Below, piece by piece: positions 4,601 to 63,707 of a stretch of DNA of 64,000 nucleotides. Each line of letters opens with the position of its first letter. Position 1 is the first letter of the stretch. Below the pieces are notes generated by a model that was not told the DNA's origin, made no database searches, and saw nothing but the letters and a program-made list of their open reading frames with translations. The stretch is from the IMG/VR virus record IMGVR_UViG_3300021963_000054, positions 40,952 to 104,951 of that record, one strand, 5' to 3'. Source of the DNA: a virus. The translations under genes and the position numbers were made by a program.

Positions 4601-5279
4601 CGAGATAACGAATAGACAAGCAAACGTAGGTGCGGCTGCAATTACTGTCACAAATGGTTATCAAGCAAATACTGGTGCAGCCTTAATTACTGCATTAAAT
4701 GCAAGTAACATTTCTTCGGGTACATTACCATCGGGTAGAATTTCTGGTTCTTATACTGGTATAACTGGCGTTGGTACACTCACAGCAGGGACTTGGAATG
4801 CCACTAGCATTAGTACAACATACACAGATGCTAAAGTAACTTCTGTTGCTAGTAAGACTGGAGCGGTTTCATTGGCGCAAGCGGACATTTCGGGATTAAC
4901 AACCGCCAGCAGTCCAACATTTGCTGGACTAACTATAAATGGCTCAATTACTGCTACTGGTGATATCACAGCTGGTTACTCGGATGATAAACTAAAAACA
5001 AGATTGGGTAATATTGAGAATGCTCTTGATAAAGTCTCGGCTATTTCAGGATTCTTCTATGAGCCAAATAAAACAGCACAAGATTTAGGTTTTGAAGTTA
5101 AGAGAGAAGTTGGTGTATCTGCACAAGAAGTTCAAGCAATTATGCCAGAAGTTGTTGTTCCTGCTCCAATAGATAATCAATACTTAACTGTTTACTATGA
5201 AAAACTTATTCCTCTGTTGATTGAAGCTATTAAAGAATTGAGAGCAGAAGTTGAAGAAATAAAAGGACAAATTAAATGA
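1677..5279 (+). CDS. Large tail fibre with C-terminal S74 intramolecular chaperone
   Basis: 1200 residues. The N-terminus (INNITRTNTIDEWRIQTN) matches the attachment domain of T4-like cyanophage fibre proteins. The middle consists of low-complexity Asn/Ala/Val/Thr repeats (ARITANATVAHLTSSGSVV; QANVGAG), consistent with a long trimeric shaft. The C-terminus has the peptidase S74 (endosialidase-type) chaperone: Ser1102 in S-D-D-K-L-K with Lys1107 five residues on, which is the Ser/Lys spacing of the autocleavage site, followed by SAQEVQAIMPEVV and a terminal helix. Trimer folding followed by release of the ~99-residue chaperone is expected. Two tandem DNA repeats lie inside. Probable receptor-binding or long-fibre component. 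Confidence 0.85.
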   Translation: MSINNITRTNTIDEWRIQTNQSATELNKIETGNYDKFSGSLNIACTAVLSITAQGTPLQVSNNALIGTQLTVGKDIILGSEISQTGNLSVGNTVYIYGGATALYVANNVISNGSLLVRNTITTNNVTVNSNVVVVGTANAGYLGVANSGYVGTTLTVIGNTAVGNLTTANSVVADNGRFSNNVTVEHIIAANSVVSYGARITNNTITGNLNSTSVVADNARITANATATEITVTTLNATNARVSGNANVAHLTSSGSVVADNARITANATVAHLTSSGSVVADNARITANATATEVTVTTLNATNARISANANVAHLTSSSSVVADNLRITSPTASANISGNVIAGNVNTQGMVYAGSLVSGKTDVGALTVTSLSTGGEATVGDLNVTGDFVLSGSIVYDADILTISTASPITTTGEAYFGVFRGNDKGGVSGGSGGASANANAYIRWSSSANNWQIRDVFNSDSTTTYSKILTANLITTSTASVSNNDFASSWLMKNYVDNANTNLKSYVDTSAIQTAAANAGLLGINLSANIGAARIADTANSGLGDIIVMGRANGAFGVANLASNTFNGTSGSAAPSNGIISFTSTNGVTLVGASNTITVNTPQDVRTTASPTFSGLTLTNALPTSQGGTGATSPGGALTNLLPAGGTSGYVLATSGSGTYYWAAGGTGGGGSATPGTTIVSTRTTPTVNASQRIFATPIYQTGTGQLRVFINGVRQFASEYTEGANNLTGVASVSSNGYFSTTSATSTLVANAALAITGTLTGTGTITSYVSGKTYYISNINGNFFSLSETVGGAAITTTAGTTTGLSFTTGHNVTLTTGTSAGDAILLEVDAYTVNPYYANNIAYGPVTGEIAASANTIQLAIDSLESRKITTTAAQANVGAGLITVTNAYQANVGAARISDVATLQANTGALSIGLTNEISGRQANVGAAVISVTNGYQANTGAVNIGLSNEITNRQANTGAVNIGLSNEITNRQANVGAAAITVTNGYQANTGAALITALNASNISSGTLPSGRISGSYTGITGVGTLTAGTWNATSISTTYTDAKVTSVASKTGAVSLAQADISGLTTASSPTFAGLTINGSITATGDITAGYSDDKLKTRLGNIENALDKVSAISGFFYEPNKTAQDLGFEVKREVGVSAQEVQAIMPEVVVPAPIDNQYLTVYYEKLIPLLIEAIKELRAEVEEIKGQIK
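2421..2552 (+). repeat. Two tandem 66-bp repeats in the fibre gene
   Basis: Two adjacent 66-base copies (2421-2486 and 2487-2552) differ only at the last base. Each encodes 22 residues of the shaft (VAHLTSSGSVVADNARITANAT). In-frame copy-number change would lengthen or shorten the fibre shaft. Confidence 0.95.
4509..4616 (+). repeat. Two tandem 54-bp repeats in the fibre gene
   Basis: Copies at 4509-4562 and 4563-4616 differ by one base (acaggt versus actggt). Each encodes 18 residues of the QANTGAVNIGLSNEITNR type. The near identity at DNA level implies recent duplication or ongoing slippage or recombination. Confidence 0.95.
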
Positions 5280-25836: not shown

Positions 25837-26409
25837 ATGAACGGCGAATGGGCTTACTTCAAAAGTAGATTTACCAAAGAGCAATGTGATTTCATTTTAG
25901 ATGAAGGTCTAAAGTTACCTTCTAAAAAAGCATCTATGGGTGTTTCAGATGAAATTGTGGATGATGATTACCGAAGAAGTGAGATTCGGTTTATTCATCA
26001 AGAACCCAAATTCCAATTTCTCTTTGATGAGATTTGGAAAATGGCAATTCAAGCAAACCACGACTTCTTCAATTTTCATATTAGCAGATTAAGTTTTGTA
26101 CAACTTGCTGAATATTCATCCGAATATCAAGGCGAATATAAAAGACACCATGATGTGTTTTGGATGAATGGTGATCCACACTTTCATAGAAAACTTACAT
26201 GTGTAATCCAGTTGACTGATCCGACAACTTATGAAGGTGGTGATTTTGAGATGTATGACTTGTCGCAAAATTCTCCAGATAAGGAAGAAATACGACAACA
26301 AGGTACGGCAATATTTCTTCCATCTTTCATAAGTCACGCAGCCTTGCCAGTGACAGAAGGAACAAGACATTCATTAGCAGTATGGATGGAAGGTCCTAAG
26401 TGGAGATAA
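25837..26409 (+). CDS. 2-oxoglutarate/Fe(II) dioxygenase, prolyl-4-hydroxylase-like
   Basis: 190 residues. The double-stranded beta-helix iron site is visible: His104-x-Asp106 in 'KRHHDVFWM', a distal His167 in 'FISHAALPV', and Arg177 in 'TRHSL' for 2-oxoglutarate. This is the layout of prolyl-4-hydroxylase-type oxygenases, which oxidise a substrate C-H using O2 and 2-oxoglutarate. The gene lies 0.7 kb after the last collagen-like fibre gene, and a second oxygenase-like gene and a glycosyltransferase follow directly. The substrate could be fibre proline or other residues (inference); it could also act on a host protein or metabolite. Confidence 0.8.
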   Translation: MNGEWAYFKSRFTKEQCDFILDEGLKLPSKKASMGVSDEIVDDDYRRSEIRFIHQEPKFQFLFDEIWKMAIQANHDFFNFHISRLSFVQLAEYSSEYQGEYKRHHDVFWMNGDPHFHRKLTCVIQLTDPTTYEGGDFEMYDLSQNSPDKEEIRQQGTAIFLPSFISHAALPVTEGTRHSLAVWMEGPKWR

Positions 26410-26966: not shown

Positions 26967-27722
26967 ATGAAAATATGCAGAGTTATCTTTTCTACAAACA
27001 GACCAGAATTCTTAATACCGACTTTAGAATCACACCAAAAGTATATTGACTTTGGTGACCATGAAGTTTATGGCATATTCATAGATGACTATCCAAAAGA
27101 TAGAGATGATAAACTTATTGTAGAGTTAGCCAAAAAATATGGATTCAATGAAGCAGTTCTTCATACAGAGAATCTTGGTTTAACACCAACTTGGACAGAG
27201 TTATGGAATTATCTAGCCACACAAGATTATGATTACATCTGGCACCATGAGGATGATGTAGTCTTTGGTGCACCAATCAAAATACAAACTCTGATAGATT
27301 TTCTGGAAGAAAACAAAGAGTTTTGTCAAGTCAATCTAAAGCGAAATCCATGGTATGATTTTGAATTGAACAAACCAGCAATCACATGGGAAGACAAATT
27401 CTTTAGGGAGTACCGATATGATGTTAGGGATGACTATTTCTGGACAATGGCATCATTGTATCCAGCTTGGGTAACAAAAGAGCCAGTAAAAGAAGTTGAA
27501 GATTGCAATTTGGCTGAATATCCAGTGATGAAATATTTCAAAGAGCAATATAAGATGAAGATGGCCATTCTTAAGAATCAAGACGGAAGCAATCTTGTGG
27601 AACATATTGGAGTATATTCCCAAGGCAAAAGAGTGCTTGAGGGTGAGCCAGGATGGGAAGGTTTTAAGTGGTTTGATCCTAATAAAAAATATGATTCCAA
27701 GACTGGTGCCTTAATAGTATAA
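26967..27722 (+). CDS. GT-A family glycosyltransferase-like protein
   Basis: 251 residues. 'CRVIFSTNRPEFLIPTLESH' near the N-terminus and the acidic 'YIWHHEDDVVFGAP' near residues 90-103 (metal- and nucleotide-sugar-binding DxD-like) are typical of GT-A glycosyltransferases. The middle 'NLGLTPTWTELWNYL' follows the usual order. It starts one base after the oxygenase-like gene and ends at the late promoter of gp13. A role in glycosylating virion fibres or surface structures is inferred from position. Confidence 0.7.
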   Translation: MKICRVIFSTNRPEFLIPTLESHQKYIDFGDHEVYGIFIDDYPKDRDDKLIVELAKKYGFNEAVLHTENLGLTPTWTELWNYLATQDYDYIWHHEDDVVFGAPIKIQTLIDFLEENKEFCQVNLKRNPWYDFELNKPAITWEDKFFREYRYDVRDDYFWTMASLYPAWVTKEPVKEVEDCNLAEYPVMKYFKEQYKMKMAILKNQDGSNLVEHIGVYSQGKRVLEGEPGWEGFKWFDPNKKYDSKTGALIV

Positions 27723-27725
27723 ATA
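27718..27725 (+). promoter_or_regulatory. Late promoter box TATAAATA
   Basis: Exact TATAAATA overlapping the stop of the glycosyltransferase gene, 26 bases before gp13; drives the neck-terminase operon. Confidence 0.75.
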
Positions 27726-27751: not shown

Positions 27752-28708
27752 ATGGCTAAACCCACAACTAGAGCAACTTTCAAAGACTACTGCCTACGCA
27801 GATTGGGTCATCCAGTAATCCAAATCAATGTGGATGATGACCAAGTTGAAGACAGAATTGATGATGCGCTACAATTCTTTGAAGACTATCATTTTGATGG
27901 TTGCGAACAATTGTACATGAAGCATCAAATTACCCAAGCAGACATTGACCGCAGATGGATTTATTGCCCAGATCCGGTCATTTTTGTTACCGGCATTATA
28001 CCATTTGACCAGTCATCTTCCTCAGTCAATATGTTTGACTTGCGCTATCAGTTGCGTTTGCACGATTTGTATGACTTCACATCGGTGTCTTATGTGTCAT
28101 ATGAAATTACCATGCAACACATCCGCACATTGAATCTACTATTTTCCGGAACACCATTGTTTAGATTCAATCGTAAACAAAATAAGATTTTCTTAGATAT
28201 TGATTGGGGTAAAGATTTACAAGTTGGTCAATACGTTGTTGTGGAATGTTACCGCGCATTAAGACCAGACACAGTTACTTTGACCGGAACTTTGACTGGT
28301 ACAACAAGTAGCAACACTATCACAGGAACAGCAACAATATTTGACCAAGAAGTTCTTGAAAATGACTTTATCACACTATCTGATGGTCAAGAAGTTCAGA
28401 TTCGTACAATCAATTCTCCAACAAGTATTACCATTGCTAACAGTTTATCGGCAAATATTACCGCAAACACAGCAACAAAAGCTGGCGTTTCGGATGTTTG
28501 GAATGACAAGTTTTTGAAGACTTATGCTACAGCAAAAATTAAGTATCAATGGGGTACTAATCTTTCTAAGTTTGCGGGCATTCAAATGCCTGGTGGAGTA
28601 ACACTAGATGGTCCAAGAATCATGCAAGAAGCACAAGCTGAGTTGGACAAACTAGAAGAAGAAATGTACACCATCAGCAGTATGCCTAGCGAAATCTTTG
28701 TGGGCTAA
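27752..28708 (+). CDS. gp13: Neck protein gp13
   Basis: 318 residues, close to the 309 of T4 gp13. The N-terminal 'FKDYCLRRLGHPVIQINVDDDQVEDRIDDALQFFEDYHFDG' (in part) and the central 'FDLRYQLRLHDLYDF' are characteristic of gp13 of T4-like phages, which forms the neck with gp14 and helps join the filled head to the tail. A Thr/Ser-rich insert (residues ~170-245, TGTLTGTTSSNTITGTATIF) is a local elaboration. Followed after two bases by gp14. Confidence 0.85.
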   Translation: MAKPTTRATFKDYCLRRLGHPVIQINVDDDQVEDRIDDALQFFEDYHFDGCEQLYMKHQITQADIDRRWIYCPDPVIFVTGIIPFDQSSSSVNMFDLRYQLRLHDLYDFTSVSYVSYEITMQHIRTLNLLFSGTPLFRFNRKQNKIFLDIDWGKDLQVGQYVVVECYRALRPDTVTLTGTLTGTTSSNTITGTATIFDQEVLENDFITLSDGQEVQIRTINSPTSITIANSLSANITANTATKAGVSDVWNDKFLKTYATAKIKYQWGTNLSKFAGIQMPGGVTLDGPRIMQEAQAELDKLEEEMYTISSMPSEIFVG

Positions 28709-28710
28709 AC

Positions 28711-29619
28711 ATGCCAACGAATTTTTATTTTAATAATTTTCCATTACACCAAATAACTAGTGAGCAATTACTAGTAGAAGATTTGGTGATTGAAGCTATG
28801 CAAATACATGGCATGGATGTTTATTATCTACCACAGACTTCCAGAGACCAAGTAGACATGCTCTATGGTGAAGACACATTAAAAGAATTTCGTAGTGCTT
28901 ATGGAATTGAAATGTATCTTGAGAATGTTAGCGGCATGGATGGTGAAGGCGATTTCATATCAAAGTTTGGCTTAGAGATTAGAGATGAAGTAACTTTGTT
29001 AATGTCCCGCAGAAGATTTGCATCTCTAGGAACATCTTTAGTTAGACCAAGAGAGGGTGATTTAATTTATATTCCTCTACTAAGAAATTTCTTTGAGATA
29101 TCGTTTGTGGAACATGAAAACAATCAAGCGATGTTCTACACATTAGGTCGTGGTCGTGGTGGTAATGTTTATGTGTATGCATTGAAACTAAAACAATTTG
29201 TCTTTAGTGAAGAAATTATTTCTACTGGCGTTGATGAAATTGATGACCAGATATTTGATAGCTACAAACGTGCATCGTTGCCTATTGCAAATACTACAGT
29301 ATTTCCGGCAGGAACTGGTTCTTTTGTTCCTGGCGAAATCATATATCAAGGTTCTTCATTAGCAACAGCAAACGCACAAGCTATTGTTCATTCTTATACT
29401 GCACATTCATCCGTCAGCATTATTCGTGTACAAGGATCTTTTGCTACTGGCAATGTTCGCGGCAACACAAGCAATGCTTTGAGAAGTGCCATAACTTACA
29501 ATGATGATACGCAAGTTGGTAATAGCATCTTTGAAGATATCGCAGACAATGTTAGAATAGAAACTGAAGCCGATGGAATATTGGACTTCACGGAACATAA
29601 TCCATTTGGTGAAGCCTGA
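28711..29619 (+). CDS. gp14: Neck protein gp14
   Basis: 302 residues (T4 gp14 has 256). 'DLVIEAMQIHGMDVYYLPQTSRDQVDMLYGED' (in part) and 'LVRPREGDLIYIPLLRNFFEI' are conserved gp14 segments. gp14 joins gp13 at the neck below the portal. The C-terminal ~100 residues are a beta-rich insert (FVPGEIIYQGSSLATANA). Its stop codon shares a base with the gp15 start (TGATG), so translation is coupled. Confidence 0.85.
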   Translation: MPTNFYFNNFPLHQITSEQLLVEDLVIEAMQIHGMDVYYLPQTSRDQVDMLYGEDTLKEFRSAYGIEMYLENVSGMDGEGDFISKFGLEIRDEVTLLMSRRRFASLGTSLVRPREGDLIYIPLLRNFFEISFVEHENNQAMFYTLGRGRGGNVYVYALKLKQFVFSEEIISTGVDEIDDQIFDSYKRASLPIANTTVFPAGTGSFVPGEIIYQGSSLATANAQAIVHSYTAHSSVSIIRVQGSFATGNVRGNTSNALRSAITYNDDTQVGNSIFEDIADNVRIETEADGILDFTEHNPFGEA

Positions 29620-30620
29620 TGTTAAATAACTCACACTTTTATAATAGAACAATTCGTAAAGTAGTAGTTGCTTTTGGCACACTATTCAACGATTTGTTAT
29701 TGGTAAGATACAATAAAGCTGGAACAATTGAGCATGAGAGAATGCGTGTTCCTCTTTCCTATGGCGCAAAAGAGAAATATGTTACCAGATTGATATCTGA
29801 TCCAACACTAACAAAATCTATTGCAACATATGTGCCAAGAATTTCTTTTGATTTGGTTGGATTAGAATACGATTCATCCAGAAAATTCAATTCAATCAAT
29901 AGAAACTTTTCTACAAATGCTTTGACGGGTGCAGTATCCGCACAGTACGCACCAATACCTTACAACTTTGAATTTGAGTTAGCTATCTATGTTAGAAACA
30001 CAGAGGATGGTACACAAATTCTTGAGCAGATATTGCCATACTTCACACCAGACTTTACTGTGACTGTGGATTTAATACCTTCATTAGGTAGAAAATATGA
30101 TATGCCAGTCATTCTTAATTCTGTGACACCACAAACAGAGTATGAAGGTGATATGTCTACGACTAGACTTATCATTTGGAACTTATCTTTTACTGTAAAA
30201 GGATATATTTTCCCACCAGTAAGCACCGTTGGTTTAATTGAACAGGCAAACACGAACATCTACACCGATTCAAGAAACACCCTATCGCAAAAAGTATATG
30301 TTGATTATGCTAATGGTTCTGGTGTTTTAGTTACAGGTGAAGTTGTTAGAAGTTCATCCAAAAACAAAACAGGGACTGTTGTGTACTTTGCAAATAATAG
30401 CGGAGGCACATTAGTAGTGTCAGACTTAAATGAATTACTTGAAGAAGATGATGTGATTGTTGGTGATTATTCTAATGCTACATATACAATAAATACCGTA
30501 GATTTGAATCCACTAAAAACAGTTTCAATTATAACTGTACCAGATCCAGTAACAGCAAATTCGGATGAAGATTTTGGATTCTCAGAAACGATTACAGAAT
30601 TTCCAAGTACATTGACTTAA
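29619..30620 (+). CDS. gp15: Tail sheath stabilisation / terminator protein gp15
   Basis: 333 residues. 'SHFYNRTIRKVVVAFGTLFNDLLL' and 'RVPLSYGAKEKYVTRL' followed by 'YVPRISFDLVGLEYDSSRK' are the hallmark of gp15, which caps the tail tube and sheath and binds the neck. Longer than T4 gp15 (272) by a C-terminal beta-rich extension (residues ~215-310) resembling virion insert domains. Order gp13-gp14-gp15 confirms identity. Confidence 0.85.
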   Translation: MLNNSHFYNRTIRKVVVAFGTLFNDLLLVRYNKAGTIEHERMRVPLSYGAKEKYVTRLISDPTLTKSIATYVPRISFDLVGLEYDSSRKFNSINRNFSTNALTGAVSAQYAPIPYNFEFELAIYVRNTEDGTQILEQILPYFTPDFTVTVDLIPSLGRKYDMPVILNSVTPQTEYEGDMSTTRLIIWNLSFTVKGYIFPPVSTVGLIEQANTNIYTDSRNTLSQKVYVDYANGSGVLVTGEVVRSSSKNKTGTVVYFANNSGGTLVVSDLNELLEEDDVIVGDYSNATYTINTVDLNPLKTVSIITVPDPVTANSDEDFGFSETITEFPSTLT

Positions 30621-30634
30621 AATAGGAAGTCTAA

Positions 30635-31576
30635 ATGACAAAAAAGTTTTCTCAATTAACCGCAATCTCTAATGTTGGAGACACACCAGGAAATGTTATA
30701 TTTTCTATTTCCAACACGGCAAGCGGAACATCAAATACTATATCACTCATTTCATTACGCACATATCTTGATTCTACATTTGCAACAGATATCGCATCAC
30801 AAGCAAACGTTGGCGCTGGTCTTATTACAGTAACCGCAGCCGGTCAAGCTAACGTTGGTGTTGAAGTGGCTGCAAGGTCAGCAAACGTTGGCGCAGGTAG
30901 AATTGCGGATGTTGCTTCTGGTCAAGCAAACGTTGGTGCTGGTATCATTACTGTAACTTCCGCATACCAAGCAAATACTGGTGCAGCCGCTTTAGCAGGT
31001 CAAGCAAACGTAGGCGCTGGACTATTAGCATATCAAACTACATCACAAGCAAACGTTGGTGTTGCTATTGCAGTCGGTCAAGCAAACGTAGGCGCTGGAT
31101 TAATTACTACTAAAGCTAATTATGAAGCTAACGTCGGTGCAGCCGCTTTAGCAGGTCAAGCAAACGTTGGTGCAAGTGTTGTTATATTAACCAATAATCT
31201 TGGTAATGCATTCAATCAAGCTAACAGCGCATACACAGCGGCTAATACTGCATTGAACATTTCACAGAACATTAGAATTCAAGATTATACACTACAATTA
31301 ACTGACCGCGGCGGGCACATCTATAGTACCAATACACAAGTTCAAACAATTACAATTCCTAATTCTGGTGTTGTTGCATGGCCTACTGGCACAGTAATTG
31401 ATATCGTGTTGAATGGTACTGGTAGAATTAATGTTGCAACATCAAATGATGTTACTCTTTATGTTGCTAACAATTCAACAGTAAAAGGATATGCAAACGT
31501 TTACTCATATGGTTGGGCTACACTATTAAATGTTGGAGCAAATACTTGGTTCATCAAAGGGCAGGGCGTAGATTGA
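30635..31576 (+). CDS. Fibrous virion protein with QANVGAG repeats, between gp15 and gp16
   Basis: 313 residues. The N-terminus 'KKFSQLTAISNVGDTPGNVIFSI' looks like a virion docking segment. Residues ~50-190 contain about nine copies of a QANVGAGLITVT-type repeat, shared with the fibres at 1677, 5276, 10951 and 9810. The C-terminal ~95 residues (GGHIYSTNTQVQTITIPNSG) form a beta domain seen as a capping domain in other phage fibres. Its place inside the neck/terminase operon, 5 kb from the fibre array, suggests a neck or collar appendage. The last four bases overlap gp16. Confidence 0.7.
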   Translation: MTKKFSQLTAISNVGDTPGNVIFSISNTASGTSNTISLISLRTYLDSTFATDIASQANVGAGLITVTAAGQANVGVEVAARSANVGAGRIADVASGQANVGAGIITVTSAYQANTGAAALAGQANVGAGLLAYQTTSQANVGVAIAVGQANVGAGLITTKANYEANVGAAALAGQANVGASVVILTNNLGNAFNQANSAYTAANTALNISQNIRIQDYTLQLTDRGGHIYSTNTQVQTITIPNSGVVAWPTGTVIDIVLNGTGRINVATSNDVTLYVANNSTVKGYANVYSYGWATLLNVGANTWFIKGQGVD

Positions 31577-31956
31577 AAACTAATGAAAATCTATCCAACA
31601 TCTTTGGAGTTCAACCACTCGCAGAAGACGAATCTTCTTTGATTGAAATTGTTCCAACAGATGTGGACTCAGACTTTGAATTTGCAAGAAACAACATTCG
31701 TGAGTTAGCCGAAAAAGGTAAAGTTGCTGTAGATAATATTCTTATGGTAGCAAAAGCAACGGATCATCCAAGAGCATATGAAGTTGCGGCCACATTAATT
31801 AAGAATATGTCTGACATTAATAAAGATTTGCTTGAGTTGCAGAAGAAGAAAAAAGAGTTGTCACCAGTTAAAGAACAGACTGTGGTGAATGTGGACAAAG
31901 CAGTATTCGTAGGCTCAACAAGAGATTTGATTAAACAAATTAAACAGGTAGGATAA
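31573..31956 (+). CDS. gp16: Terminase small subunit gp16
   Basis: 127 residues from a TTG start that overlaps the previous stop (TTGA); the longer frame from 31513 would run 60 bases back through the fibre gene and is rejected. 'DFEFARNNIRELAEKGKVAVDNILMVAK' and 'HPRAYEVAATLIKNMSDINKDLLELQKKKKEL' (in part) are typical of T4-like small terminase central helices that form the oligomeric ring regulating gp17 and binding DNA. Shorter than T4 gp16 (164), as in other environmental T4 relatives. Confidence 0.8.
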   Translation: MKTNENLSNIFGVQPLAEDESSLIEIVPTDVDSDFEFARNNIRELAEKGKVAVDNILMVAKATDHPRAYEVAATLIKNMSDINKDLLELQKKKKELSPVKEQTVVNVDKAVFVGSTRDLIKQIKQVG

Positions 31957-31957
31957 A

Positions 31958-32392
31958 ATGGAACAACTAATCCAACAACTAAAGGTAATCTTGGGCACCA
32001 ATTTTGCTTTGTATCTAAAATCACATGGCTTTCATTGGAATATTGAGGGTGCTAATTTTCCACAGTATCATGGATTCCTTGATGAATTCTATAATGATGT
32101 TTGGGCACAAAACGATGTTATTGCTGAACACATTCGTCAGTTAGATTCATATGCGCCAGGTTCATTAGAAAGAATGTTGGAATTGGCTGACTTGGAAGAA
32201 TCACAAAACATTCCTATGGCACTTGCTATGATGACAGAATTGAAACGTGATAATGATAGATTCATCATACATCTACGTGCGGGTATTGTAGCCGCTGAAC
32301 AAGCAGATGAACCAGCAGTTGGTAACTTCTTGCAAGACTTGCTAGGCGCACATCAGAAAAAAGCATGGATGTTAAGAAGCATTATTAAGTAA
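31958..32392 (+). CDS. dps: Dps-like ferritin (DNA protection / iron storage)
   Basis: 144 residues of four-helix-bundle type. All ferroxidase-centre ligands of Dps are present with the family spacing: His26, His38, Asp42, Asp53 and Glu57 (in HWNIEG, YHGFLDEFY and NDVIAEHI). These correspond to His51, His63, Asp67, Asp78 and Glu82 of E. coli Dps. Dps dodecamers oxidise Fe(II) with peroxide, store iron and can coat DNA. The basic N-terminal DNA-binding tail of E. coli Dps is absent, so DNA binding is uncertain. It begins one base after gp16 and its last base is the first of gp17 (TAATG), so it is part of the packaging operon. Confidence 0.88.
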   Translation: MEQLIQQLKVILGTNFALYLKSHGFHWNIEGANFPQYHGFLDEFYNDVWAQNDVIAEHIRQLDSYAPGSLERMLELADLEESQNIPMALAMMTELKRDNDRFIIHLRAGIVAAEQADEPAVGNFLQDLLGAHQKKAWMLRSIIK

Positions 32393-34026
32393 TGTCAATT
32401 GGTGGTTATTTAGGTAATCCAAAGTTAAAACGTTCTGGTGTACAAGTTGAGTACACCAATGACCAATTAATTGAGATTACTCGGTGCATTAAAGACCCAG
32501 TCTACTTCATTAAGAATTATGTAAAGATTGTTAACGTAGACTTGGGTCTCATTCCTTTTGATATGTGGAACTTTCAAGAGGAGATGGTTCGTGGTTTCCA
32601 TAATAATCGCTTCTCTATTGCTAAGATGCCACGACAGGTTGGTAAAACAACCACCACAGCTGGTTATATGCTTTGGGCAGTTTTGTTTACAGATGACTAC
32701 AAGATTGCGATTTTAGCGAACAAAGGCGACTTAGCCCGTGACATTCTTGGTCGTATCAAATACTCATATGAATATCTTCCATTGTGGATGCAACAAGGCA
32801 TTATGGAATGGAACAAAGGAAACATCGTTCTTGAGAATGGTTCTGAGATTTCAGCTTACGCAACAAACGCATCTGGTGTTCGTGGAGGAACATACAATCT
32901 AGTATTCTTGGATGAGTTTGCTTTCGTTCCACAAAACATCGCAGCCGAATTCTTTACTTCCACTTATCCGGTAATCTCGTCTGGTAAAACTACAAAAGTT
33001 ATTATCGTTTCAACGCCGCATGGATTGAATCAGTTCTATAAGATGTGGACTGATGCAGTAGAACAACGTTCATTGTATGTACCATTTGAAGTTCACTGGT
33101 CTATGGTGCCAGGAAGAGATGCCGCTTGGCGTGAAGAAACGATTAGGAACACCAGTGAAGAACAGTTCAGGCAAGAGTTTGAGACTGAGTTTATCGGTTC
33201 TTCAGCTACATTGATTCCTGGTGCTAAACTGAAGATGTTAGCGTTTAATAATCCAGTAGAAAAAGAAGAATACTTAGACATTTACGAAGCACCTAAGCCA
33301 GGTCATACTTACATGGCGATTGTAGATTGCGCTGAAGGTGTAGGCCTGGACTATTCCGTATGCTCAATTGTAGACGTTACCGAATTACCATACAAACATG
33401 TAGCCAAGTTTAGAGACAATAAACTGTCAGCGTTTATCTTTCCAACTTATGTTTACAACCTAGCTAATAGATATAATCGTGCTTGGATATTGGTAGAAAC
33501 AAATAGTGTTGGACAACAAGTCGTTGATATTTTACATTATGATTTGGAGTATGAAAACATCTTCCGAATTGAAAGCCATGATATTAAAGGTCAGCACATT
33601 GCCAGCGGATTCAAGAAGGGTGCAGCCTATGGTGTCAAAACATCCAAGACAGTCAAAAAGATTGGTTGTTCCAACTTAAAAACTCTAATAGAAACTGACA
33701 AACTCATTACTACAGACTTTGACACCATTGCGGAGCTAAATACCTTTGTAAGAGATAAAGATTCTTATAAAGCCGAAGAGGGCAACAATGATGATATTGT
33801 AATGACTTTGGTGCTTTTTTCATGGTTGTCAGCACAAAGTTTCTTCAAAGAGATAACAAATTCCGATGTTAGACAAAGACTTTTAGAAGAAAGAAACATC
33901 CAAATGGAAGAAGAATTACTGCCGATAGGCATTTTGGATGACGGCTTAGAAGAAGAAAAACATTTTGATGGAGAAGACCTCTGGACTGTAACAAAACGCA
34001 GAGGATATCTTTCGTCAGCTTTATAA
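32392..34026 (+). CDS. gp17: Terminase large subunit gp17
   Basis: 544 residues (T4 610). The ATPase Walker A is near residues 79-87 (MPRQVGKTT) and Walker B at 171-178 (VFLDEFAF, Asp174/Glu175); a coupling motif 'IVSTPHG' lies near 205-211. The C-terminal RNase H-like nuclease begins near 'YMAIVDCAEGVGLDYS' (Asp312, Asp320) with later acidic residues in 'NNDDIVMTL'. It packages DNA into the prohead and makes the end cuts. Overlaps dps by one base. Confidence 0.95.
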   Translation: MSIGGYLGNPKLKRSGVQVEYTNDQLIEITRCIKDPVYFIKNYVKIVNVDLGLIPFDMWNFQEEMVRGFHNNRFSIAKMPRQVGKTTTTAGYMLWAVLFTDDYKIAILANKGDLARDILGRIKYSYEYLPLWMQQGIMEWNKGNIVLENGSEISAYATNASGVRGGTYNLVFLDEFAFVPQNIAAEFFTSTYPVISSGKTTKVIIVSTPHGLNQFYKMWTDAVEQRSLYVPFEVHWSMVPGRDAAWREETIRNTSEEQFRQEFETEFIGSSATLIPGAKLKMLAFNNPVEKEEYLDIYEAPKPGHTYMAIVDCAEGVGLDYSVCSIVDVTELPYKHVAKFRDNKLSAFIFPTYVYNLANRYNRAWILVETNSVGQQVVDILHYDLEYENIFRIESHDIKGQHIASGFKKGAAYGVKTSKTVKKIGCSNLKTLIETDKLITTDFDTIAELNTFVRDKDSYKAEEGNNDDIVMTLVLFSWLSAQSFFKEITNSDVRQRLLEERNIQMEEELLPIGILDDGLEEEKHFDGEDLWTVTKRRGYLSSAL

Positions 34027-34029
34027 AAA

Positions 34030-34037
34030 CATAAATA
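34030..34037 (+). promoter_or_regulatory. Late promoter box CATAAATA
   Basis: CATAAATAG, 44 bases before the sheath gene ATG, with an AAAGGAG ribosome site in between. Confidence 0.65.
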
Positions 34038-48705: not shown

Positions 48706-50414
48706 TTTTTTTCAAAGCGATAAAATTTAAGAACTTTCTATCCACTGGTAATTACTTCACAGAAATTAATCTGTGTAATAGTACCAACACACTGGTAGTA
48801 GGAACAAACGGCGCCGGTAAGTCTACCTTGCTTGATGCGCTGTGCTTTGTTTTGTTTGGAAAACCATTTCGTTCTATCAATAAACCACAACTGGTAAACT
48901 CAATCAATCAAAAAGATTGTGTGGTTGAATGTGAGTTTAGTATCGGAAGCAAGAATTTTAAGATTGTTCGTGGTATCAAACCAAACATCTTTCAAATTTA
49001 TGTTGATGGTGAAATGTTGAATCAAGATGCGGCTGTAAAAGACTACCAAGAACACCTAGAGAAATTTATTCTCAAACTTAATTATAAGTCTTTCACACAG
49101 ATTGTCATTCTCGGTTCAGCATCTTTTGTGCCATTCATGCAACTATCTGCGGCTGACCGCAGAGCAATCATTGAAGATTTGCTGGACATTCAAATCTTTT
49201 CTACCATGAATAGTTTGTTGAAAGATAAACACTCAATCAATAAAGAAACTGTTCAGAGTAACAAGCATGAATTAGACTTGTGTTCCAATCAACACAAATT
49301 GGTAGAAGAACATACAGAAAAAATCAAAAAGACTACCGATGAATTGATTGTAAGCAAAGAGTTGGAAGTAGCGAATGTTTGGCTTGAGATTGATTTGGTG
49401 CAAACCGAAATTCAATCAATGAACACACAAATTGTAGAGTTGCAAAAAGCAATAGAAGACAAAACTGTGGTGAATGACAAACTCAAAAAATTGAACCAGT
49501 TTGAAACTCAGATTGAAACCAATCTGTCCAAGTATCGTAAAGACATAAACTTTTTCCTAAATAACGATGACTGCCCAACATGCAGACAAAGTATCCAACT
49601 AGAGTTTAAAGATAATCAAGTAAAAGATTTGAATGATAAAGCTGAAAAGTGTACACATGGTTTGTCCAAACTAGAAGCTGACATTCTAGCACAACAAAAC
49701 AGATTGAATGAGATTACCAAAATTTCTAGTGAGATTCAAGTCAAGCAAGTTGCTGTTGCATCCAATAACTCCACTATTGTGGAATTAAATAAGTACATAG
49801 GTAAATTGCAAAAAGAGATAGGAGTATTGTCATCATCCAAGGAAGACTTGTCCTCGGAGACCAATAAACTTCTCGCATTGAAAACACAATTAGAGCAACT
49901 AGAATCCAAAAAGAAATTGTTAATAGAAGAAAAAACATATCTTGAAGCCGCCTCTCTGTTGTTAAAAGATACTGGTATCAAAACAAAAATTATTAAACAG
50001 TATTTGCCTATCATAAACAAGTTGGTAAATAAGTATCTAGCATCGCTGGATTTCTTTGTCAATTTCAATCTTGATGAATCGTTCAAAGAAACAATCAAGT
50101 CACGCCATCGTGATGAATTTAGTTATGCATCGTTTAGTGAAGGTGAGAAACAGAGAATTGATATGGCACTTATGTTGACATGGAGAGCAGTAGCAAAACT
50201 TAAGAATTCTACCAATACTAATTTGTTAATTTTGGATGAAGTGTTTGATAGTAGCCTAGATAATAATGGAACTGAGTACTTGATGACAATTCTACAGATG
50301 CTTGAAGATGTTAATCTATTTGTGATATCACACAAGGGTGACATACTGCAAGATAAGTTCCGAAACTTAATTCGGTTTGAGAAGGTAAATAATTTTTCAA
50401 GGATAGTAAAATGA
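48702..50414 (+). CDS. gp46: Recombination endonuclease subunit gp46 (Rad50-like)
   Basis: 570 residues (T4 560). Walker A 'GTNGAGKST' (residues 34-42), a long coiled coil interrupted by a zinc hook Cys291-Pro-Thr-Cys294, ABC signature 'FSEGEKQRIDMAL', and Walker B 'LLILDEVFDSSLD'. It is the ATPase partner of gp47. The order gp47-gp46 is the standard one. Its stop overlaps the deformylase start. Confidence 0.95.
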   Translation: MIFFKAIKFKNFLSTGNYFTEINLCNSTNTLVVGTNGAGKSTLLDALCFVLFGKPFRSINKPQLVNSINQKDCVVECEFSIGSKNFKIVRGIKPNIFQIYVDGEMLNQDAAVKDYQEHLEKFILKLNYKSFTQIVILGSASFVPFMQLSAADRRAIIEDLLDIQIFSTMNSLLKDKHSINKETVQSNKHELDLCSNQHKLVEEHTEKIKKTTDELIVSKELEVANVWLEIDLVQTEIQSMNTQIVELQKAIEDKTVVNDKLKKLNQFETQIETNLSKYRKDINFFLNNDDCPTCRQSIQLEFKDNQVKDLNDKAEKCTHGLSKLEADILAQQNRLNEITKISSEIQVKQVAVASNNSTIVELNKYIGKLQKEIGVLSSSKEDLSSETNKLLALKTQLEQLESKKKLLIEEKTYLEAASLLLKDTGIKTKIIKQYLPIINKLVNKYLASLDFFVNFNLDESFKETIKSRHRDEFSYASFSEGEKQRIDMALMLTWRAVAKLKNSTNTNLLILDEVFDSSLDNNGTEYLMTILQMLEDVNLFVISHKGDILQDKFRNLIRFEKVNNFSRIVK

Positions 50415-50998
50415 ATGATAATGATATTTTAGTTATTGATACTGGAGCAAAAGCTCCAACCAAAGTTGTAGAAGAACAGATTCTTCCACTGTCTATTTTA
50501 ACAGAAGGTAATCCAATTCTAAAAACACCAGTTGAAGAATTTGATATGTCGCAAGTCATGCAACCAGAAATTCAAAAATTTATTAAGCAGTTGAAGTTGA
50601 CAATGAAAACCTACAATGGTGTTGGACTGTCAGCGAATCAATGTGGTTTTAAGTTTAGAATGTTTGTTATTGGTACAGACCAATTTCAGATGACTTGTAT
50701 CAATCCAAGAATTATTGATGTTGATGGTGAACCAAAACTAATGCGTGAAGGTTGCTTGTCATATCCAGCGTTGTTTGTTGGCGTACCTAGATATGAAGGT
50801 ATTCTTGTACATTACTATGATGAATACTCACAGCCAAAAGAATTGTGGTTGCGTGGTATTACCGCACAATGTTTCCAACATGAATTGGAACATCTTGATG
50901 GTAAAGTATTTCTTGAAAGAGTTAAGCCTCTTGCTATGCAGATGGCAAGAAAACGTCAAACTAAATTGATTAAGAAGATTGTAAGGAAATCAAAATGA
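50411..50998 (+). CDS. def: Peptide deformylase
   Basis: 195 residues. All three deformylase motifs are intact: 'GVGLSANQCG' (from residue 70; normally GxGLAAxQ), 'EGCLSYP' (Cys115, metal ligand) and 'QHELEHLDG' (His157, Glu158, His161). It removes the formyl group from nascent N-terminal Met. Known in marine cyanophages, where it is thought to speed phage or photosystem protein turnover; here no photosynthesis genes are visible. The N-terminal ~27 residues are an extension beyond the core. Overlaps both neighbours by ATGA. Confidence 0.93.
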   Translation: MNDNDILVIDTGAKAPTKVVEEQILPLSILTEGNPILKTPVEEFDMSQVMQPEIQKFIKQLKLTMKTYNGVGLSANQCGFKFRMFVIGTDQFQMTCINPRIIDVDGEPKLMREGCLSYPALFVGVPRYEGILVHYYDEYSQPKELWLRGITAQCFQHELEHLDGKVFLERVKPLAMQMARKRQTKLIKKIVRKSK

Positions 50999-51366
50999 GC
51001 GATATAAAAGTTCAAGAAACAACTGAGTATGAGAGTTGTCTTGATTTTGAGAGTGATGATATCAATGATGTTTCTAAATTTATGGATGGTGAAGAAACAC
51101 AAGAAGAAAAACTTCCTATAGTTGAAGTTGATGATTCGTTGCTTACCAGAGACCAATTCTTCAAGAAGTATTGGAAAGGTATGCCGACTTTTGACCAGAA
51201 TGATAATCCACCTTGGAAACAACTTTATGTTAACTTCCGAAATGAAGAAGATTATCTAGCATTTGCTAAGTTGATTGACCAAGCACTATCAGATAAGAGT
51301 AAAAGTATTTGGTATCCAAAACTTGACGTAGAAGAAAACTCATTGAATCGTTGGATTGTAGAATGA
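50995..51366 (+). CDS. Small phage protein with 'WKGMPxF...KSIWYP' motif
   Basis: 123 residues. An acidic, variable N-terminal half is followed by 'KYWKGMPTFDQNDNPPWKQLYVNFRNEEDYLAFAKLIDQ' (in part) and 'KSKSIWYPKLD'. This C-terminal pattern recurs in phage proteins, free or fused to ParB-like or DNA-modification domains. Its place directly before a TET-associated-type glycosyltransferase fits a DNA-modification accessory, but no activity can be assigned. Coupled to both neighbours by ATGA. Confidence 0.55.
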   Translation: MSDIKVQETTEYESCLDFESDDINDVSKFMDGEETQEEKLPIVEVDDSLLTRDQFFKKYWKGMPTFDQNDNPPWKQLYVNFRNEEDYLAFAKLIDQALSDKSKSIWYPKLDVEENSLNRWIVE

Positions 51367-52268
51367 TTAACCCTAAGTATCCAGTTTATATTATCTCTAA
51401 AGGTCGGCATGAATCCATGTTGACTTCTCGGTCACTCGCTCGTATGAAAGTTCCTCATTACATTGCAATTGAACCACAAGACCTAGACAACTATGAGAAA
51501 GCATTGGATGAATTTAAGATTCGCCCATATGTTACATTGCTAGTTGCGCCATTCAGTAATCATGGCGATGGTCCTGGTCGTGCTAGAAATTGGTGTTGGG
51601 ATCATGCGATTGAAATTGGTGCAGAAAAGCATTGGGTACTAGATGATAACATTTCTGATTTCTACCGTTTGAATCAGAACAAACGATACCGTGTAGAATC
51701 TGGTGCTATCTTCCGAGCCGCAGAAGATTTTGTTGACCGCTTTGAGAATGTGCCAATCTCTGGCTTTCAGTATCGTTTCTTCATTGCACCAAATTCAAAG
51801 TATCCTCCTTTCGTAACTAACACACGAATCTATTCTTGTTTGCTTATCTCTAATGATTGCAAACATCGTTGGCGTGGTAGGTACAATGAAGATACTGATA
51901 TCTGTCTCCGCGTATTGAAAGATGGTGATTGCACTATTCAATTCAATGCATTCTTGCAAGGTAAAGCGGCTACACAAACAGTTAAGGGTGGTAACACCGA
52001 AGAATTCTATCATAAAGAATTTGCTGACCAAGACGAAAACTTTAAGAAGACTGGTTACAACAGTAGTGGCACAATCAATAAGTCTCAGATGCTTGCAGAT
52101 ATGCATCCAGATGTTGCAAGAGTTGTTTGGCGTTATGGTCGTTGGCATCATTATGTTGACTATAATCCATTCAAGGTAAACAAACTGCGAATGAAAGCTG
52201 ATGCTGTAATTCCAGAAGGCAACAACGAATATGGAATGAAGTTGATTCGTAATTGGAAAGCAGATTGA
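51363..52268 (+). CDS. TET-associated-type glycosyltransferase (TAGT family)
   Basis: 301 residues from the ATG at 51363 (ATGA overlap); the TTG at 51351 is less likely. 'YPVYIISKGRHESMLTSRSLARM', 'VPHYIAIEPQD', 'GPGRARNWCWDHA' and 'KHWVLDDNISDFYRL' are the conserved blocks of the TAGT glycosyltransferase family, linked in phages to sugar addition on oxidised pyrimidines in DNA. The LDDN motif probably binds the metal/nucleotide sugar. No TET/JBP-type oxygenase is found in this window, so the acceptor may be made elsewhere in the genome or be different. Confidence 0.8.
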   Translation: MINPKYPVYIISKGRHESMLTSRSLARMKVPHYIAIEPQDLDNYEKALDEFKIRPYVTLLVAPFSNHGDGPGRARNWCWDHAIEIGAEKHWVLDDNISDFYRLNQNKRYRVESGAIFRAAEDFVDRFENVPISGFQYRFFIAPNSKYPPFVTNTRIYSCLLISNDCKHRWRGRYNEDTDICLRVLKDGDCTIQFNAFLQGKAATQTVKGGNTEEFYHKEFADQDENFKKTGYNSSGTINKSQMLADMHPDVARVVWRYGRWHHYVDYNPFKVNKLRMKADAVIPEGNNEYGMKLIRNWKAD

Positions 52269-63257: not shown

Positions 63258-63707
63258 ATGTCAGTAACATTAAAAAATCTTGAGAGCGCATTGGCTGGTG
63301 AATCAATGGCTCATATCAAGTATCGGTATTTCGCTAAGATTGCTATGGAAGAAGGGTATGAGGAAGTTGCCAAACATTTTTGGCACACAGCAGACCAAGA
63401 ACTTCTACATGCATGGGGTCATCTAGAATTGTTGATTGGTAAGCCTTCTACCAAAGAATGCTTAGAAAAAGCAATTGAAGGTGAGACTTATGAGTTTACA
63501 GAAATGTATCCACAGTTTCAAGCTATTGCTGAACGTGAAGGTAACATTGAAGCGGCTAAAGAAGCCTATGAGCAAATTGAAGAATCAAAAAAACATGCGG
63601 AACAATTCAAAGCAGTTTTAGCTAAGGCAGAAAAACGATTCAATGCTTTGAAGAAAGTTGAAGAACGCCATGCAAATGCATATAAACAAGTATTGGAGGC
63701 ACTATGA
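63258..63707 (+). CDS. Rubrerythrin diiron domain protein
   Basis: 149 residues. The complete rubrerythrin ligand pattern is present: Glu15, Glu48-x2-His51 ('QELLH'), Glu76-x2-Glu79 ('GETYEF') and Glu109-x3-His113 ('ESKKH'). The four-helix bundle reduces hydrogen peroxide. The C-terminal rubredoxin domain of classical rubrerythrins is missing but is encoded by the next gene, which overlaps by four bases (ATGA). Confidence 0.88.
   Translation: MSVTLKNLESALAGESMAHIKYRYFAKIAMEEGYEEVAKHFWHTADQELLHAWGHLELLIGKPSTKECLEKAIEGETYEFTEMYPQFQAIAEREGNIEAAKEAYEQIEESKKHAEQFKAVLAKAEKRFNALKKVEERHANAYKQVLEAL

What the first reader, a model, noticed from the sequence alone, without database searches (positions are those of the whole stretch)
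31958..32392. Dps-like ferritin inserted between the terminase genes gp16 and gp17
A protein with exact Dps ferroxidase spacing sits in the late packaging operon, coupled to both terminase subunits. Late timing and location raise the idea that it protects newly made DNA or is packaged with it, rather than merely storing iron. Together with the split rubrerythrin this phage carries two separate iron/peroxide systems.
Basis: partly seen in the sequence, partly recalled or inferred. Interest (0 to 1): 0.7.

Follow-up and report, generated by a model that had tools for sequence, protein, structure and literature searches.

The report
Phage iron-storage cage beside DNA-packaging motor
A large group of uncultured viruses of bacteria carries, wedged between the two genes of its DNA-packaging motor, an intact gene for a small iron-storing, peroxide-removing cage protein (Dps), which probably shields new virus DNA from iron-driven oxidative damage while particles are filled, and in unrelated viruses the same protein is fused to a capsid-building protease.

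Summary
ORF 31958-32392 (+) is an intact 144-aa Dps mini-ferritin between the T4-type terminase genes gp16 and gp17, coupled to both. The model (pLDDT 97) matches Dps crystal structures over all 144 residues, including the Dps-specific BC helix. The four ferroxidase residues are invariant in 164 distinct relatives.

The placement is lineage-wide. Among contigs found by terminase alone, 50 of 52 distinct intervals of the window's type carry dps; a sister type has 20 of 44, a marine type 0 of 27. The interval is a cargo slot: it can be empty or hold a nuclease, fibre genes or other enzymes, and two Dps lineages (about 40% identical) occupy it. Late expression is supported by T4-type late promoter motifs.

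DNA binding is not supported: there is no basic tail and all relatives are acidic. Most likely it is a late-made cytosolic ferroxidase that removes Fe(II) and peroxide during packaging.

Unexpectedly, unrelated phages fuse Dps to the prohead protease (35 contigs, portal-[Dps-protease]-capsid) or place it directly after portal or terminase genes. So a capsid-associated role stays open and testable.

Phage Dps as such is known; this arrangement and the fusions appear unreported in the papers I could search.

The parts
31958..32392 (+). dps: 144-aa Dps mini-ferritin
   Evidence: PF00210 E 7.9e-19; phrog_3636 E 3e-32; AlphaFold2 pLDDT 97.4; VIA-align Z about 23 to Dps crystal structures over 144 residues
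32033..32035 (+). codon of ferroxidase H26
   Evidence: invariant in 164 distinct relatives
32069..32071 (+). codon of ferroxidase H38
   Evidence: invariant in 164 distinct relatives
32114..32116 (+). codon of ferroxidase D53
   Evidence: invariant in 164 distinct relatives
32126..32128 (+). codon of ferroxidase E57
   Evidence: invariant in 164 distinct relatives
32165..32185 (+). short BC helix (residues 70-76), typical of Dps dodecamers
   Evidence: DSSP on the model: helices 2-28, 34-61, 70-76, 88-115, 119-143
31573..31956 (+). gp16-like terminase small subunit (likely start TTG 31573; longest frame from 31513)
   Evidence: phrog_445 E 7.5e-34; PF11053 E 5e-12
32392..34026 (+). gp17-like terminase large subunit
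   Evidence: PF03237 E 2.4e-31, PF17289 E 1.4e-10
27718..27725 (+). TATAAATA, putative T4-type late promoter of the operon that contains dps
   Evidence: last such motif before dps, 27 nt upstream of ORF 27752
27752..28708 (+). gp13-like head-tail adaptor
   Evidence: phrog_211 E 3e-41
28711..29619 (+). gp14-like head closure protein
   Evidence: phrog_460 E 9e-66
29619..30620 (+). gp15-like tail sheath stabiliser
   Evidence: phrog_227 E 7.5e-78
30635..31576 (+). repeat-rich fibre-like protein
   Evidence: phrog_16053 tail fiber E 1.4e-7
34030..34037 (+). CATAAATA, next late-promoter-like motif, before the tail sheath gene

Best explanation
The gene encodes a genuine Dps mini-ferritin. It was acquired as cargo in the terminase (gp16-gp17) interval of a T4-like phage lineage and is kept there because that position gives late, packaging-phase expression. 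Proposed mechanism: late RNA from the gp13-gp17 operon makes the protein together with the packaging motor. Twelve subunits form a cage. The ferroxidase sites oxidise Fe(II), preferably with H2O2, and store the ferric mineral, which removes both reagents of Fenton chemistry while many genome copies are exposed in the dying cell and being packaged. Protection would be chemical and in trans, not by coating DNA. Shown here: identity, predicted fold, conserved active site, operon, conserved placement, absence of a DNA-binding tail, dispensability. Inferred: dodecamer, activity, timing, benefit.
For: Family, fold and site. Placement: 50 of 52 distinct window-type intervals selected by terL alone carry dps (survey); 20 of 20 dps-bearing records have a ferritin match over the cut-off, and in 19 of them it is the only one. 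Purifying selection: median dN/dS 0.11. Late operon and motifs. No tail, acidic. Optional: L102 and L104 lack it with an intact junction. Two Dps lineages in the same slot, e.g. terL 86% identical but dps 38%, imply selection for a Dps at this place. Published precedents for phage Dps: PMC8008677, PMC6669764, PMC4281155.
Against: No expression, activity or particle data exist. The late timing rests on promoter motifs and gene context. One relative has Dps outside the slot beside an hsp20-like gene, so late packaging-phase expression is not essential everywhere. Fusions of Dps to capsid-assembly proteins in other phages suggest a virion-linked rather than purely cytosolic role.
Confidence: 0.6

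Rival explanations
1. Capsid-associated Dps: the cage is taken into or bound to the head during assembly and protects the packaged genome, or delivers a ferroxidase with it into the next host.
For: In unrelated phages Dps is part of the head-maturation protease: 35 contigs with one ORF carrying both a Dps domain and the prohead protease, flanked by portal (PF04860) and major capsid (PF05065) genes. Other phages have Dps, often with long C-terminal extensions, right after the portal gene, or right after terL (L498, L501). A Dps-domain protein was found by mass spectrometry in a phage SU10 preparation (PMC4281155).
Against: The window's Dps is free-standing and has no targeting extension; it is acidic with no DNA-binding tail. 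The SU10 sample also contained DNA polymerase and other non-structural proteins. No head protein in the window is known to bind it.
Confidence: 0.2
2. Plain niche cargo: the gp16-gp17 junction is a tolerated insertion site, and dps is an auxiliary gene whose place and timing have no meaning for packaging; it raises host peroxide and iron tolerance like Dps of gut phages.
For: Other occupants of the slot: SNase-like nuclease, F5/8-C protein in Melnitz, 2OG-Fe(II) oxygenase plus tryptophan halogenase in HTVC008M, 1-4 kb of largely fibre-like genes in marine relatives. dps and terL do not share one history. Gut phage Dps was read this way in PMC8008677.
Against: Near-fixation (50 of 52) and in-place replacement of one Dps by another point to a benefit tied to this locus.
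Confidence: 0.15
3. Iron logistics: Dps collects iron late to load iron-containing tail parts (Ferrojan-horse idea) or to recycle iron for phage Fe(II) enzymes such as the 2OG oxygenase at 25837.
For: A ferritin-like gp217 was detected in a Vi01-like phage proteome near a tail completion gene (PMC10892097); the window has a 2OG-Fe(II) oxygenase.
Against: In that study TonB and FeoB mutants were infected normally. No iron-binding tail protein was identified here.
Confidence: 0.05

Closest known systems
Bacterial Dps mini-ferritins (T. elongatus Dps 2c41, B. subtilis MrgA 2chp, P. aeruginosa PA0962 8ff9, B. anthracis Dlp-1/2)
   Same: Fold over all 144 residues, Z about 23, rmsd 0.9-1.2 A; ferroxidase residues; short BC helix
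   Different: Phage-encoded, no tails, 18-31% identical; in a packaging operon
Dps of the 'protects DNA without binding' kind (Agrobacterium Dps 1o9r, Listeria Dps 1qgh)
   Same: Same fold; the 1o9r entry title describes protection without DNA binding, the mechanism proposed here
   Different: Bacterial genes, not late phage genes
phrog_3636 phage Dps (Salmonella phage 7-11, phiEco32-like SU10, Synechococcus phages S-SRM01 and S-EIV1)
   Same: Same protein family
   Different: Only about 22-32% identical; in the records read dps lies in replication/nucleotide or accessory regions, not between terminase genes
Dps of gut 'Gratiaviridae' and other gut phages (PMC8008677)
   Same: Phage-borne Dps proposed to counter reactive oxygen
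   Different: Bacteroides phages; a position in the terminase interval is not reported in the passages read
Cargo genes in the gp16-gp17 interval of HTVC008M and Melnitz
   Same: Same slot in related T4-like phages
   Different: Different cargo and no ferritin match in either genome

Membership tests
Dps (12-mer mini-ferritin) | Ferritin-like domain above the curated cut-off | tested here: met
   PF00210 68.4 bits against cut-off 24.5
Dps (12-mer mini-ferritin) | Intersubunit ferroxidase residues H-x11-H-x14-D-x3-E | tested here: met
   H26, H38, D53, E57, invariant in 164 distinct sequences
Dps (12-mer mini-ferritin) | Four-helix bundle with a short helix in the BC loop | tested here: met
   Helix 70-76 in the model; Dps-type structures are the best matches
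Dps (12-mer mini-ferritin) | Dodecameric cage | not testable with these tools
   Monomer model only
Dps (12-mer mini-ferritin) | Fe(II) oxidation, preferably with H2O2 | not testable with these tools
   Needs purified protein
DNA-binding Dps (E. coli type) | Basic N- or C-terminal tail | tested here: not met
   No N-terminal extension possible beyond two codons; net charge -8 (relatives -3 to -12), lengths 144-146 aa
phrog_3636 phage Dps family | Profile match | tested here: met
   112.7 bits over residues 2-143
T4-type late gene | Downstream of a late promoter motif within a late operon | tested here: inconclusive
   TATAAATA at 27718 heads a run of closely packed or overlapping genes through terL; no transcript data
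Host-derived auxiliary metabolic gene | Close homologue in host bacteria | tested here: inconclusive
   Best bacterial matches found were 28-38% identical to the profile's lead sequence, from scattered phyla; the pattern scan is not exhaustive and the host is unknown

The most novel reading that the evidence does not exclude
Phages of several unrelated lineages bring a Dps ferroxidase cage into the capsid-assembly and packaging step, as a free protein co-made with the terminase in this T4-like clade and as a domain of the prohead protease in HK97-type phages, so that iron and peroxide are removed at or inside the filling head: a virion-linked antioxidant function.
Probability: 0.25. Interest if true: 0.85.

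Novelty: new variant of a known kind. Interest (0 to 1): 0.6.

Why it matters
Phage genes that manage iron and peroxide are usually read as help for the host cell. A Dps nearly fixed between the terminase genes of a widespread T4-like clade, swapped in place for another Dps lineage, and fused to the prohead protease in unrelated phages, suggests instead that some phages protect their own DNA at the packaging step. That is directly testable by virion proteomics and gene deletion in cultured relatives.

Tried and rejected
(1) Chance motif: rejected by family scores, fold and invariance. (2) Contamination or chimera: rejected, with 245 related stretches and the same synteny in dozens of contigs. 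(3) A dedicated late promoter for dps: NATAAATA lies within 60 nt upstream of dps in 85 of 141 relatives, nearly always 12-18 nt away, and in 0 of 141 upstream of terL, but it mostly coincides with the codons AAT AAA TAR ending terS (84% observed against about 55% expected from codon use, not corrected for shared ancestry), and the window itself lacks it. Left as a weak lead. (4) dps as an essential part of the packaging machine: rejected by clean loss in L102 and L104. (5) Vertical co-inheritance of dps with terL: rejected by discordant identities. (6) A recent close bacterial donor: none found. (7) The very high conservation of the first 24 residues among close relatives looked special, but fades in the wider set. 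(8) The dN/dS comparison between genes is biased because pairs were chosen on dps identity; only the low absolute value is used. (10) The Ferrojan-horse paper itself is not held.

Full report
WHAT IS THERE. ORF 31958-32392 (+) encodes 144 residues. It matches PF00210 and the phage family phrog_3636, and by sequence solved Dps proteins. An AlphaFold2 model from 56 relatives has mean pLDDT 97.4 and shows the four long helices plus the short helix at residues 70-76 that marks Dps among ferritins (the last point from general knowledge of the family). Foldseek and VIA-align put Dps crystal structures first, with Z about 23 over the whole chain. The ferroxidase residues H26, H38, D53 and E57 have Dps spacing and do not vary in 164 distinct relatives. 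Selection is purifying (median dN/dS 0.11).

THE NEIGHBOURHOOD. The order is head-tail adaptor (gp13), head closure (gp14), sheath stabiliser (gp15), a fibre-like gene, terS (gp16), dps, terL (gp17), then sheath and tube. The genes from 27752 to 34026 overlap or lie at most 14 nt apart. The motif NATAAATA, the T4-type late promoter form, occurs 15 times on the + strand and not once on the - strand, mostly just upstream of genes; one copy at 27718 heads this run and the next is at 34030, before the sheath gene. Late expression is therefore likely but inferred.

THE SAME INTERVAL IN RELATIVES. I collected relatives by dps and, to avoid bias, by terL alone. After removing identical intervals, 50 of 52 window-type loci have dps between terS and terL and two have a direct junction; of a sister terL type 20 have dps, 20 a direct junction and 4 a staphylococcal-nuclease homologue; of the marine Melnitz type none of 27 has dps and all carry longer inserts, largely fibre-like genes. 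Cultured relatives hold an F5/8-C protein (Melnitz) or a 2OG-Fe(II) oxygenase plus halogenase (HTVC008M). So the interval is a cargo slot, and in one lineage Dps has almost taken it over. dps and terL have separate histories: some phages share 80% of Dps but only 45% of TerL, others 86% of TerL but only 38% of Dps, and the tree shows two Dps lineages in the slot. One relative with the nuclease in the slot has a Dps elsewhere, beside an hsp20-like gene. The contigs were not assigned to habitats with a tool; that many come from lakes is my recollection of dataset numbers, not a result.

DOES IT BIND DNA? Probably not in the E. coli way. An in-frame stop lies only two codons upstream of the ATG, there is no C-terminal tail, and all relatives are 144-146 aa with net charge -3 to -12. 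Some Dps proteins protect DNA without binding it (title of PDB 1o9r).

AN UNEXPECTED LINK TO THE CAPSID. Fold matches among viral proteins included entries named prohead protease. A scan for the Dps motif alone gave 120 contigs, among them long fusions. In L547, L477 and L539 one ORF carries PF00210 and, C-terminal to it, the caudovirus prohead protease PF04586; a portal gene (PF04860 in L477) lies upstream and a capsid gene (PF05065 in L547) downstream. A follow-up scan found 35 contigs with the fused ORF and 33 related ones with the protease but no Dps in the stretch seen, some of them cut by the contig end; 40 of 42 Dps-bearing ORFs in that set keep the ferroxidase spacing. In another set Dps, mostly with long C-terminal extensions, follows the portal gene directly, and in L498 and L501 it follows terL. 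Among 82 non-redundant upstream neighbours portal was the commonest family, with 12; cytidylyltransferase-like and unknown genes are also common, so the head link is recurrent, not universal.

WHAT IS KNOWN. Phage Dps was reported in Lactobacillus phages (PMC6669764), gut phages (PMC8008677) and phiEco32-like phages, where a Dps-domain protein turned up in a phage preparation together with non-structural proteins (PMC4281155). A pelagimyophage survey with freshwater members does not mention ferritin or iron in its main text (PMC7029224). The text searches I ran turned up no report of a terminase-interval Dps or a Dps-protease fusion; that library is partial.

VERDICT. The most likely function is late, chemical protection by iron and peroxide removal during packaging. 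Packaging into the head remains possible and is made more plausible by the fusions elsewhere, but it is not shown for this phage.

Noticed in passing
L547:2617-4869 (+), L477:306-2567 (-), L579-L609, L615, L616, L618, L620: Dps domain fused in one ORF to the prohead protease, between portal and capsid genes; 35 contigs in the follow-up scan, with Dps-less relatives.
   Followed up: yes
L514:5977-8154, L534:676-2232, L524:2140-3465, L471:2286-3398, L523:12210-13346: Dps with long C-terminal extensions (some with DUF5824); in L514, L524 and L471 the upstream gene is a portal.
   Followed up: partly
63258-63707: Single uninterrupted 149-aa rubrerythrin-like ORF without rubredoxin, downstream of clamp, clamp-loader, RegA-like, Hsp20 and phosphoesterase genes.
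   Followed up: partly
51351-52268 and 25837-26409: TET-associated glycosyltransferase (PF20691) and a 2OG-Fe(II) oxygenase; possible DNA modification and Fe(II) demand.
   Followed up: no
50411-50998: Peptide deformylase, a metalloenzyme, in the replication region.
   Followed up: no
L235:3045-3473, L237:3045-3473; L578: SNase homologue occupying the terS-terL slot; the record of L235 has its Dps elsewhere beside an hsp20-like gene.
   Followed up: partly
L029-L081: Two TerL subtypes (about 45% and 70% identical to the window's) adjoin nearly equally similar Dps proteins, indicating recombination within the packaging genes.
   Followed up: partly
3' end of terS in relatives, e.g. L029 about 4981-5000: NATAAATA motif spanning the terS stop just before dps in 85 of 141 relatives; partly explained by the codons AAT AAA TAR.
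   Followed up: partly
G031:C1:46645-47007: A 172-kb relative has a second, weaker ferritin-like match besides its Dps.
   Followed up: no
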